Source: Clostridia bacterium (lineage in GTDB: Bacteria; Bacillota; Clostridia; Oscillospirales; Acutalibacteraceae). Taken from it: a DNA stretch of 54,690 nt. A program made the translations under genes and the position numbers. Positions 47,914 to 49,062 of the stretch are shown here, one piece after another. Under the pieces are notes generated by a model. That model ran no database searches, was not told where the DNA came from, and saw only the letters and a list, made by a program, of their open reading frames with translations. The stretch spans positions 1-54,690 of the forward strand of contig JAFSEF010000127.1 in NCBI GenBank assembly GCA_017435865.1. Reading direction: 5' to 3'. Every line of letters starts with the position of its first letter. The stretch's first letter is position 1.

Positions 47914-48666
47914 TTATAAATTAAGTAACTGTTTTTTCTTTTCGTCAAATTCTTCCTGTGTGATAGCTCCCATATCAAGAAGATCTTTGAATTTTTTGAG
48001 TTCATCAGCAGCCGAAGTTTGTTGAATTATTGTGGTTGATTTTTCAACGCTTAATTCTTCTTTTTTCTTTTCAATAAAATTTACAATTTCTCTTGCTTGC
48101 TCTACCATAGCAGGTTGAATAGGTATTGAATTTTCATCATTTATCATTGCTCCAACTCCGCCCTTACTCTCAACACTTCCAGGATATGCAAACTGAATAA
48201 AACCTACTGTAAATCCTGCCGGTTCTCTAAACTGAACAGAAGTTAAATTTTTAATATCAATTTTTTTGCCGCCTAATGCACCACCATTTATTGCATTTGC
48301 CATAAATCCGACTTGCATATGGTTAATAACAATATATGTCTCGTATACTTCTAAAGTTGTTCCTGTATGTGCAGTCAGCTTATATTTGTAATCTTTCTTT
48401 TTTCCTTGTGACGTTTCGATTTTCTCTTGTACAAAAGCTATTGCTTGTGTAGCAACAACTCTATCAGCAAACTTGAAAGAACACTGTATTAATTTACCGC
48501 TTTTAGTGTTTCCCTGTGCTACACCTGGAAGCATAGCAGAAGCTGATGTTATAATTTTAAATGTGGATAATTCTGAAAACGGGTATTCCGTATTTCCAAT
48601 TGTGAGTGCAGTATCTGATACGCTCCAATTTTTGTTTAAGCCCGGTGCTTTGATTGATACATTCAT
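47914..48666 (-). CDS. bacterial PH-like/SHOCT domain protein
   Basis: A 250-residue cytoplasmic protein. Residues 1-200 look like two PH-like (DUF4429-type) beta-barrel repeats, each starting with a short strand-rich segment (WSVSDTALTIGNTEYPFSELS; LEVYETYIVINHMQVGFM). The C-terminus is a SHOCT oligomerisation motif: DELKKFKDLLDMGAITQEEFDEKKKQLL. Function unknown; such proteins sense stress or bind membranes or partners. The AGGAGG Shine-Dalgarno lies directly after the terminator of a 218-nt structured RNA, so expression probably depends on read-through of that terminator. Confidence 0.78.
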   Translation of the reverse strand: MNVSIKAPGLNKNWSVSDTALTIGNTEYPFSELSTFKIITSASAMLPGVAQGNTKSGKLIQCSFKFADRVVATQAIAFVQEKIETSQGKKKDYKYKLTAHTGTTLEVYETYIVINHMQVGFMANAINGGALGGKKIDIKNLTSVQFREPAGFTVGFIQFAYPGSVESKGGVGAMINDENSIPIQPAMVEQAREIVNFIEKKKEELSVEKSTTIIQQTSAADELKKFKDLLDMGAITQEEFDEKKKQLLNL

Positions 48667-48679
48667 CTTTTTTCCTCCT

Positions 48680-48715
48680 AAAAATAAAAAAGTGCGCCAA
48701 CCGAAGTTAACGCAC
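48680..48715 (-). terminator. cUUCGg-capped intrinsic terminator just before the SHOCT gene
   Basis: Stem at 48692-48715 (10 bp, two G-U), UUCG loop at 48702-48705, then TTTTTTATTTTT on the - strand. It lies between the promoter and the Shine-Dalgarno of the downstream gene. Confidence 0.88.
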
Positions 48716-48897
48716 CGAAAAACGCAAACTCCGATTGTCGCTACACAAACTAAATTAGAATTAGGGTATTATTCCCATACTCATTTTAGTGGAGTTTACG
48801 GTTTTACCAACTCACAAAAAAGTATGAGAAAATAAGATATAATTATCCCCTAAAAAGATAAAAATACCACCAATTCTAATTATTCAGTTTGTGCAGC
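48680..48897 (-). ncRNA. candidate structured leader RNA or small RNA ahead of the SHOCT gene
   Basis: The RNA predicted from the promoter begins near 48897. Its first 12 nt (48886-48897) pair with 48740-48751 (one G-U), extended by AU-rich pairing of 48863-48885 with 48752-48770. Inside lie a TTATC/GATAA hairpin and a long hairpin at 48776-48826. It ends with the 10-bp stem GTGCGTTAAC/GTTGGCGCAC capped by a cUUCGg tetraloop, and a T-run at 48680-48691. The SHOCT Shine-Dalgarno (48674-48679) follows at once. It matches no RNA family I recognise. It could be a terminator-type riboswitch, a leader, or an independent sRNA. Confidence 0.65.
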
Positions 48898-48903
48898 ATA
48901 ATT

Positions 48904-48933
48904 AGTATATCACAATAGTTTGCTAAATTTCAA
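48904..48933 (-). promoter_or_regulatory. sigma-A promoter of the structured leader RNA
   Basis: On the - strand TTGAAA (48928-48933) and TATACT (48904-48909) are 18 nt apart. The expected start, 7 nt past the -10 box, is the first base of the closing stem. Confidence 0.72.
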
Positions 48934-48940
48934 GACTTTA

Positions 48941-48995
48941 ATAAAAAAATCCCACTTGACAACTTTGCAGTTTAAACAGAAAGTGTCATAGTGGG
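48941..48995 (-). terminator. second, tandem terminator after tRNA-Leu
   Basis: CCCACT/AGTGGG with inner TGACA- and ACTTT-type pairing (48951-48995) is followed on the - strand by ATTTTTTTATT. Together with 49018-49062 it separates the ATP synthase/tRNA transcript from the leader RNA promoter. The 48667-49064 stretch contains no protein gene that I can support. Confidence 0.72.
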
Positions 48996-49017
48996 TTATA
49001 TACTTTGGTATGAAAAT

Positions 49018-49062
49018 AAAAAAATTGAGTATTCACAGGTCAAATCCCTTATGAATACTCAA
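49018..49062 (-). terminator. intrinsic terminator after tRNA-Leu
   Basis: The 11-bp stem TTGAGTATTCA/TGAATACTCAA (49025-49062) is followed on the - strand by seven T residues. It begins 2-3 nt after the tRNA CCA end. Confidence 0.88.

What the first reader, a model, noticed from the sequence alone, without database searches (positions are those of the whole stretch)
48680..48897. A structured RNA whose 5' end is base-paired to an internal segment and which ends in a UUCG-capped terminator before a SHOCT gene
The sigma-A start is predicted at the first base of a 12-bp closing stem (48886-48897 with 48740-48751). An AU-rich extension, a small hairpin and a long hairpin (48776-48826) lie inside. 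A 10-bp terminator with a cUUCGg loop and T-run then sits 1 nt from the Shine-Dalgarno. A promoter, structured domain, terminator and gene in that order is the layout of a terminator-controlled riboswitch or leader, or of an sRNA of about 218 nt. I recognise no known RNA class.
Basis: partly seen in the sequence, partly recalled or inferred. Interest (0 to 1): 0.8.

Follow-up and report, generated by a model that had tools for sequence, protein, structure and literature searches.

The report
Unrecognised gut-Clostridia transcription-attenuator RNA family
The window holds one copy of a so far unnamed family of folded RNA leaders that sit, often several per genome, between a promoter and a gene in uncultured gut Clostridia and look built to switch that gene on or off by choosing between two RNA folds, one of which stops transcription.

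Summary
The minus-strand RNA 48897-48680 folds far better than shuffles (-77.9 versus -40.4 kcal/mol, z -10.4). It starts 6 nt after an extended -10 promoter and ends in a cUUCGg terminator just before the Shine-Dalgarno of a SHOCT-domain gene. No Rfam 15 family reaches its cut-off there.

It is one member of a large family. Relatives occur in 24 of 26 genomes of the genus, 85 of 245 of the order and 77 of 291 of the class, up to 16 copies per genome; in a 299-genome phylum sample only the window's own genome matched.

The terminator covaries too and competes with the antiterminator. In the window the two folds differ by 1.5 kcal/mol. The next downstream gene is on the same strand in 238 of the 273 elements that could be judged.

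Best reading: a cis-acting, riboswitch-like attenuator of unknown effector; not 6S, T-box or c-di-GMP-I by the tests made. Effector and switching direction are inferred.

The parts
48904..48933 (-). Promoter: -35 TTGAAA (48933-48928), extended -10 TG-n-TATACT (hexamer 48909-48904), 6 nt before +1
   Evidence: in the family TGnTAnnnT precedes P1 in 184 of 215 elements, against 0-1 of 215 in four shifted control windows; in 181 the -10 ends 6 or 7 nt before P1
48884..48897 (-). P1 5' strand (RNA nt 1-14), beginning at the predicted first transcribed base
48740..48753 (-). P1 3' strand
48754..48883 (-). Enclosed body (long type): AAUA after P1, small hairpin, long hairpin; candidate sensor domain
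48791..48805 (-). Interior strand of the long-range pairing (AAAACCGUAAACUCC; covarying core 48797-48805)
   Evidence: (columns 1-6 covary), swap test, (helix 97.9% and 98.1% paired). In the window copy this helix is imperfect: one C/U mismatch and one U-G pair in the 9-bp core
48718..48732 (-). Tail strand of the long-range pairing (GGAGUUUGCGUUUUU; covarying core 48718-48726), the core lying in the antiterminator loop
48727..48737 (-). Antiterminator 5' strand (CAAUCGGAGUU)
48698..48708 (-). Antiterminator 3' strand (AACUUCGGUUG), shared with the terminator
48692..48715 (-). Intrinsic terminator hairpin GUGCGUUAAC-UUCG-GUUGGCGCAC
48680..48691 (-). Terminator T-run (TTTTTTATTTTT)
48674..48679 (-). 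Shine-Dalgarno AGGAGG of the downstream gene
   Evidence: read directly
47914..48666 (-). Controlled gene: 250-aa protein with C-terminal SHOCT domain and a DUF4429 match below Pfam's cut-off

Best explanation
A cis-acting transcription attenuator (riboswitch-like leader). SHOWN by sequence comparison: an extended -10 promoter sits 6-7 nt before P1, so the transcript is predicted to begin on P1's first base; P1 encloses a variable body; the 3' part can form either an antiterminator or an intrinsic terminator that share a strand; the body's apical loop (GGUAAAAAYGCA) is complementary to, and covaries with, the antiterminator loop (UGCGUUUUU); P1, the core of the long-range pairing and the antiterminator share no nucleotides; a gene on the same strand usually follows. 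INFERRED: when the body docks on the antiterminator loop the antiterminator is stabilised and RNA polymerase reads into the gene; when docking fails the terminator forms and a short RNA of roughly 210-218 nt is released. The effector that decides is unknown; it is probably a common cellular signal, since one genome uses the element in front of several unrelated genes, often for exported or surface proteins. The ON direction of the docked state is my commitment at about 0.45 to 0.5.
For: Fold z -10.4. Pair counts on alignments of loci that did not come from the exact-pattern scan: long type, 64 sequences, 93.7% of cells paired and 153 cells changed on both sides (shuffled mean 45.6, 0 of 500 shuffles as high; slid versions 36-51% paired); short type, 53 sequences, 92.8%, 127 cells (shuffled mean 31.9, 0 of 500; slid 39-55%); P1 plus terminator on the long type, 94.4%, 180 cells (shuffled 48.3, 0 of 500; slid 26-43%). 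Swap tests on 123 of 216 thinned elements (those not from the pattern scan): own partner better in 98.8% of swaps for P1, 78.7% for the antiterminator (74.9% over all 216), 80.7% for the long-range pairing (104 elements). Of 25 elements without CUUCGG, 23 gave a usable 3' strand, and in 22 of these the own antiterminator pairing was stronger than the mean with 40 strands from CUUCGG-type elements (L070: -13.6 versus -13.7). In the window the antiterminator fold is -77.9 and the terminator-forced fold -76.4 kcal/mol. Ribosome-site-plus-ORF start 10-60 nt after the T-run begins in 131 of 205 elements versus 74 of 1075 random positions. Next downstream gene by a crude longest-ORF rule: same strand 238, convergent 35, too short to tell 19 of 292; on the upstream side no bias (112 versus 98).
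Against: No expression data; no ligand or factor identified. Isolated thermodynamics do not show what triggers the switch: the antiterminator is the more stable by over 1 kcal/mol in 67% of 216 and the terminator in 14% (corrected rule; one search gave 67% and 13%). The shuffle and slide controls are not tree-aware. The innermost antiterminator pair is unpaired in 28 of 64 long-type sequences, and in the short type one pair fails in 38 of 53 (alignment or real). In short-type copies the interior strand also pairs within its own hairpin, so docking would need strand exchange. A few copies appear to have no co-directional gene: L291-L293 face a convergent gene, in L292 an S30AE ribosome-hibernation-type gene. 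26 of 252 elements gave no ORF by the first routine, 9 of them with under 200 nt of sequence left. In 10 of 17 tandem pairs both copies carry their own promoter and P1, which a plain cis switch does not need. 2 of 26 genomes of the genus have no hit.
Confidence: 0.76

Rival explanations
1. A trans-acting small RNA: the RNA of about 218 nt made by termination is the product, and the neighbouring gene is incidental or a read-through bonus.
For: Own promoter at a fixed distance from P1 in 181 of 215 copies and own terminator; tandem pairs, 10 of 17 with a promoter for each copy; a few apparently stand-alone copies such as L291-L293.
Against: Same-strand gene in 238 of 273 judged cases, with ribosome site and start codon right after the T-run in 131 of 205 against 74 of 1075 at random positions; a conserved antiterminator that competes with the terminator would serve no purpose in a plain sRNA.
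Confidence: 0.12
2. Attenuation by a protein or by a direct action on RNA polymerase (as LoaP/NusG-like factors, BglG-type antiterminators or put-like RNAs do; recalled) rather than by a small molecule: the body is a binding site for a factor. This shares the cis-attenuator part of the best reading and differs in the effector.
For: Body sequence is variable while loops GGUAAAA and UGCGUUUUU and the AAUA after P1 are conserved, as expected of a protein or RNA contact; downstream genes are unrelated to each other.
Against: No cognate factor is known; I did not search for one. The two conserved loops are explained at least in part by pairing with each other.
Confidence: 0.25
3. Ribosome-mediated attenuation through a leader peptide.
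For: 42 of 216 leaders contain some ribosome-site-preceded ORF of 6 codons or more.
Against: 174 of 216 do not; no start codon is conserved in the two consensus sequences.
Confidence: 0.03
4. A 6S RNA homologue (closing stem, bubble, apical hairpin).
For: Rod-like fold with paired ends.
Against: The genome has its own 6S RNA at G000:C32:8825-9017, over the Rfam cut-off; the window RNA does not match RF00013; many copies per genome and an antiterminator.
Confidence: 0.01
5. A miniature transposon whose inverted repeats merely fold as RNA.
For: Multi-copy, inverted ends, tandem copies.
Against: Promoter and terminator outside the inverted repeat are conserved with it; pairing covaries while sequence diverges; strand bias towards downstream genes. 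I did not look for target-site duplications or empty sites.
Confidence: 0.02

Closest known systems
T-box leaders (Rfam RF00230)
   Same: Gram-positive 5' leader; large 5' domain followed by mutually exclusive antiterminator and terminator; the antiterminator is stabilised by docking (recalled).
   Different: No Rfam match; no aminoacyl-tRNA or amino-acid supply family among the 25 commonest Pfam families shown for 140 downstream proteins; here the docking partner is the RNA's own body loop, not a tRNA (T-box details recalled; only a search listing with abstract starts was seen).
Terminator-type riboswitches and orphan candidate riboswitches
   Same: Conserved structured domain, expression platform with competing hairpins, directly upstream of the ribosome site, several copies per genome.
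   Different: Ligand unknown; predicted +1 at a fixed place on P1 in most copies; loop-loop pairing between body and antiterminator; downstream genes of many kinds, often exported or surface proteins and small unknown proteins, rather than one pathway.
c-di-GMP-I riboswitch (RF01051)
   Same: Leader RNAs in Clostridia often placed before surface and adhesion genes (recalled).
   Different: No Rfam match; in the window's genome neither RF01051 (E<=0.001) nor a GGDEF domain (E<=1e-10) was found, so c-di-GMP is not the likely effector there.
6S RNA (RF00013)
   Same: Structured RNA of similar length with paired ends.
   Different: Separate 6S gene exists in the same genome; the family is multi-copy and gene-linked.

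Membership tests
Transcription attenuator with intrinsic terminator (the kind it is filed under) | Terminator between promoter and start codon of the controlled gene | tested here: met
   131 of 205; 238 same strand, 35 convergent
Transcription attenuator with intrinsic terminator (the kind it is filed under) | Mutually exclusive antiterminator, evolutionarily conserved | tested here: met
Transcription attenuator with intrinsic terminator (the kind it is filed under) | Regulated termination in vivo or in vitro | not testable with these tools
   needs transcription assays or RNA-seq
Riboswitch | Direct binding of a specific ligand by the RNA | not testable with these tools
   no ligand known
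Riboswitch | Member of a described riboswitch class held in Rfam 15 | tested here: not met
   no match at the window element at gathering score or with E below 1, nor at the elements in 20 loci at gathering threshold or in 16 loci at E<=0.1
T-box | Match to the RF00230 model | tested here: not met
T-box | Genes of tRNA charging or amino-acid supply downstream | tested here: inconclusive
   none among the 25 commonest Pfam families of 140 downstream proteins, but 48 further families are not shown
6S RNA | Match to RF00013 / being the genome's 6S gene | tested here: not met
   genome's 6S at C32:8825-9017
c-di-GMP-I riboswitch | Match to RF01051 | tested here: not met
c-di-GMP-I riboswitch | c-di-GMP made in the cell | tested here: not met
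   no GGDEF domain at E<=1e-10 in G000 (assembly 85% complete); GGDEF is however present in 4 of the 12 RNA-rich genomes that I chose

The most novel reading that the evidence does not exclude
A new riboswitch class of gut Clostridia, with its own fixed-start promoter cassette and a loop-loop lock between sensor and antiterminator, that senses a signal other than c-di-GMP and co-ordinates a sizeable set of envelope and surface genes, with up to 16 copies per genome.
Probability: 0.42. Interest if true: 0.9.

Novelty: new variant of a known kind. Interest (0 to 1): 0.76.

Why it matters
Leader families with ten or more copies in one cell usually report on a central signal (general knowledge). 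This one is common in herbivore-gut Clostridia, has no Rfam entry that matches, and often precedes surface proteins, lipoproteins and small unknown proteins by which such bacteria may meet fibre, host and rivals. Finding its effector would give these largely uncultured bacteria a new regulatory circuit, and the covariation model makes the switch directly testable with synthetic RNA.

Tried and rejected
Rejected with evidence: 6S RNA, known Rfam class, c-di-GMP as effector in the window's own genome, leader peptide. Viral contigs gave 0 hits, but only to one exact pattern, so divergent phage copies are not excluded.

Led nowhere or is weak: literature searches gave no title or abstract start that describes this element; I read no full text beyond passages of PMC8040213. 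That paper (Fremin and Bhatt 2021) predicted 3161 human-microbiome candidates whose tables I could not read, so an overlap is not excluded. A possible extra hairpin between the P1 3' strand and the antiterminator 5' strand (columns 1-12, z 13.7) could be an anti-antiterminator, but its variation is mostly one group of sequences, so I do not rely on it. The long-range pairing beyond its core (tail GGAG) does not covary (columns 7-10, z 0.4-1.6). c-di-GMP-I riboswitches occur in 4 of 19 relatives (G006, G038, G039, G040), which carry at most one copy of this RNA; GGDEF occurs in 4 of 12 RNA-rich and 6 of 12 RNA-poor genomes that I chose; too few to claim exclusion. In one search two of the 25 elements without CUUCGG had an empty or wrongly cut antiterminator strand because of a bad T-run rule, which spoiled that call's antiterminator mean; one search repeats the swap test with a corrected rule and no element dropped, and repeats the energies with it. 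The same simple T-run rule was used, so a few distances there may be off. lets frames that are open at the T-run count as genes, so its strands are usable but its distances are not.

Alignments A3 and A4 hold 64 and 53 of the 123 thinned elements not from the pattern scan, by length class. 37 of 177 downstream proteins were left out of the family scan (one search holds 140).

Full report
CHECK OF THE OBSERVATION. The minus strand from 48897 to 48680 folds at -77.9 kcal/mol, z -10.4 against 200 shuffles. A promoter TTGAAA-18-TATACT with an extended -10 ends 6 nt before the first stem base. Rfam 15 reports only the neighbouring tRNA in the window at gathering scores, and only matches with E>1, far below their families' cut-offs, in 48600-49060.

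The minimum-energy fold does not contain the terminator: 48737-48727 (CAAUCGGAGUU) pairs with 48708-48698 (AACUUCGGUUG), an antiterminator that takes up the terminator's upper stem and loop. Forcing the terminator costs only 1.5 kcal/mol (-76.4 versus -77.9), so the tail is close to bistable in this calculation.

A FAMILY. A DNA search found a second nearly full-length copy in the same genome, 73% identical from the -10 region to the ribosome site, and further partial matches; relatives carry more. A covariance model of the conserved tail (R1, 31 sequences) finds copies in 24 of 26 genomes of the genus at E<=0.001 (7 in the window's genome, 11 in G014; none in G002 and G025), 85 of 245 of the order at E<=0.001, 77 of 291 of the class at E<=0.0001, and in a 299-genome sample of the phylum only in the window's own genome (E<=0.0001). 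In a second look at ten genomes chosen for many hits, five hold 13-16 copies at E<=0.00001. The same exact pattern gives nothing in viral contigs.

ANATOMY. From the 296 loci held at that point I extracted 275 distinct elements; 252 have a good P1 and 216 remain after thinning. P1 was located by complementarity alone, yet its first base lies 6 or 7 nt after an extended -10 in 181 of 215 elements; TGnTAnnnT is present in 184 of 215 and in 0-1 of 215 in windows shifted upstream. Measured from P1 start to P1 end the body comes in two length classes: 158 elements of 140 nt or more and 92 under 135 nt. Consensus sequences of both have AAUA after P1, an apical GGUAAAA(A)YGCA and the same tail.

PAIRING EVIDENCE. 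In some searches I counted named pairs on two alignments built only from loci that did not come from the exact-pattern scan. P1 plus long-range pairing plus antiterminator: long type 93.7% of cells paired, 153 both-side changes (shuffled 45.6); short type 92.8%, 127 (shuffled 31.9); slid controls pair 36-55%. The long-range helix alone is 97.9% and 98.1% paired; its variable positions change together (for example U-A 23, C-G 16, U-G 14 at columns 92-181 of the short type), while its A-U run never or hardly varies and therefore says nothing. P1 plus terminator gives 94.4% and 180 both-side changes. These controls do not account for relatedness by a tree. Swap tests that need no alignment agree. 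The strongest single cases are elements that lost CUUCGG: of the 25, 23 gave a usable strand, and in 22 the own antiterminator strand pairs better than the average CUUCGG-type strand (for example L015, L005, L272; L070 does not).

GENE CONTEXT. A ribosome site and start codon follow within 10-60 nt of the start of the T-run in 131 of 205 elements against 74 of 1075 random positions. By a crude longest-ORF rule the first downstream gene is on the same strand in 238 and convergent in 35 of 292 elements (19 too short); the upstream side shows no preference (112 divergent, 98 towards). Among 140 downstream proteins, Pfam finds BspA-type leucine-rich repeats in 14, zinc ribbons in 7, AMP-binding in 5, S-layer homology in 4, M23 peptidases in 3, SHOCT in 3, and lectin, LiaF-like and other domains in 2 each (25 of 73 families shown); of 177 proteins 36 have a lipobox-like and 68 another hydrophobic N-terminus by a simple rule without a background control, so enrichment for exported proteins is an impression, not a tested result. 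The window's gene is a SHOCT protein with a weak DUF4429 match. A minority of copies look stand-alone, such as L291-L293, where the next gene is convergent, in L292 an S30AE-family ribosome-hibernation-type gene. There are 17 head-to-tail neighbours under 700 nt apart, and in 10 both copies have P1 and an extended -10.

MECHANISM. P1, the core of the long-range pairing and the antiterminator use disjoint columns (the single structure strings hold all three), so they can form together as far as nucleotides go, whereas antiterminator and terminator share a strand. The simplest model is that the body, closed at the very 5' end, docks its apical loop on the antiterminator loop and holds the tail in the read-through state; loss of docking lets the terminator form. 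The antiterminator's 3' strand also emerges before the terminator's 3' arm is complete, which favours it kinetically (inference). Direction and effector are not shown. In the window's own genome c-di-GMP is unlikely as effector, because no RF01051 riboswitch and no GGDEF domain at E<=1e-10 were found (assembly 85% complete).

AGAINST THE READING. No transcript data; the downstream gene families say little about a ligand; some antiterminator pairs fail; 42 of 216 leaders contain some short ORF; in short-type elements the docking strand is also engaged in its own hairpin; stand-alone and tandem copies are not explained by a plain cis switch.

NOVELTY. No match in Rfam 15, and no title or abstract start describing it in my searches of the open-access library. 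Papers were seen only as listings with abstract starts, except passages of PMC8040213, whose supplementary candidates I could not compare. I call it a new variant of a known kind: a new family of transcription-attenuating leaders with an unusual loop-loop lock and fixed-start promoter cassette, possibly a new riboswitch class.

Noticed in passing
L213, L132, L205, L198, L123, L209, L149, L171, L034 (downstream ORFs): A recurrent uncharacterised protein of about 52-83 residues with a cysteine-rich core like CLGNGEQGFECCCDECDYFLLCFPEFD follows the RNA in these 9 loci by a motif count; looser relatives are seen at L232, L253 and L221.
   Followed up: partly
window 48980-48995 (-); L021:1309-1324, L143:554-569, L245:1246-1261, L234:722-737: The 16-mer CCCACTATGACACTTT ends 80-86 nt upstream of P1 in the window, L021, L245 and L143; the last three precede genes that begin like the AMP-binding ones. 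L234 has it far from its element. Possibly an operator or a mobile-element end.
   Followed up: partly
L014, L123, L133, L158, L178, L189, L197, L227, L248, L258; also G172:C48:10340-10816, G544:C2:15467-15755: Head-to-tail tandem copies about 200-350 nt apart; in the ten named loci both copies have P1 and an extended -10; the two G-handle arrays were seen only as model hits.
   Followed up: partly
L034:849-923 and L295:100-171: Gut-1 RNA (RF01706) occurs within about 1 kb of two of the elements; no overlap.
   Followed up: no
L291-L293: In three related loci a conserved copy is followed by a convergent 179-aa gene; in L292 this is an S30AE ribosome-hibernation-family protein and no co-directional gene is near: a candidate true sRNA member.
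   Followed up: partly
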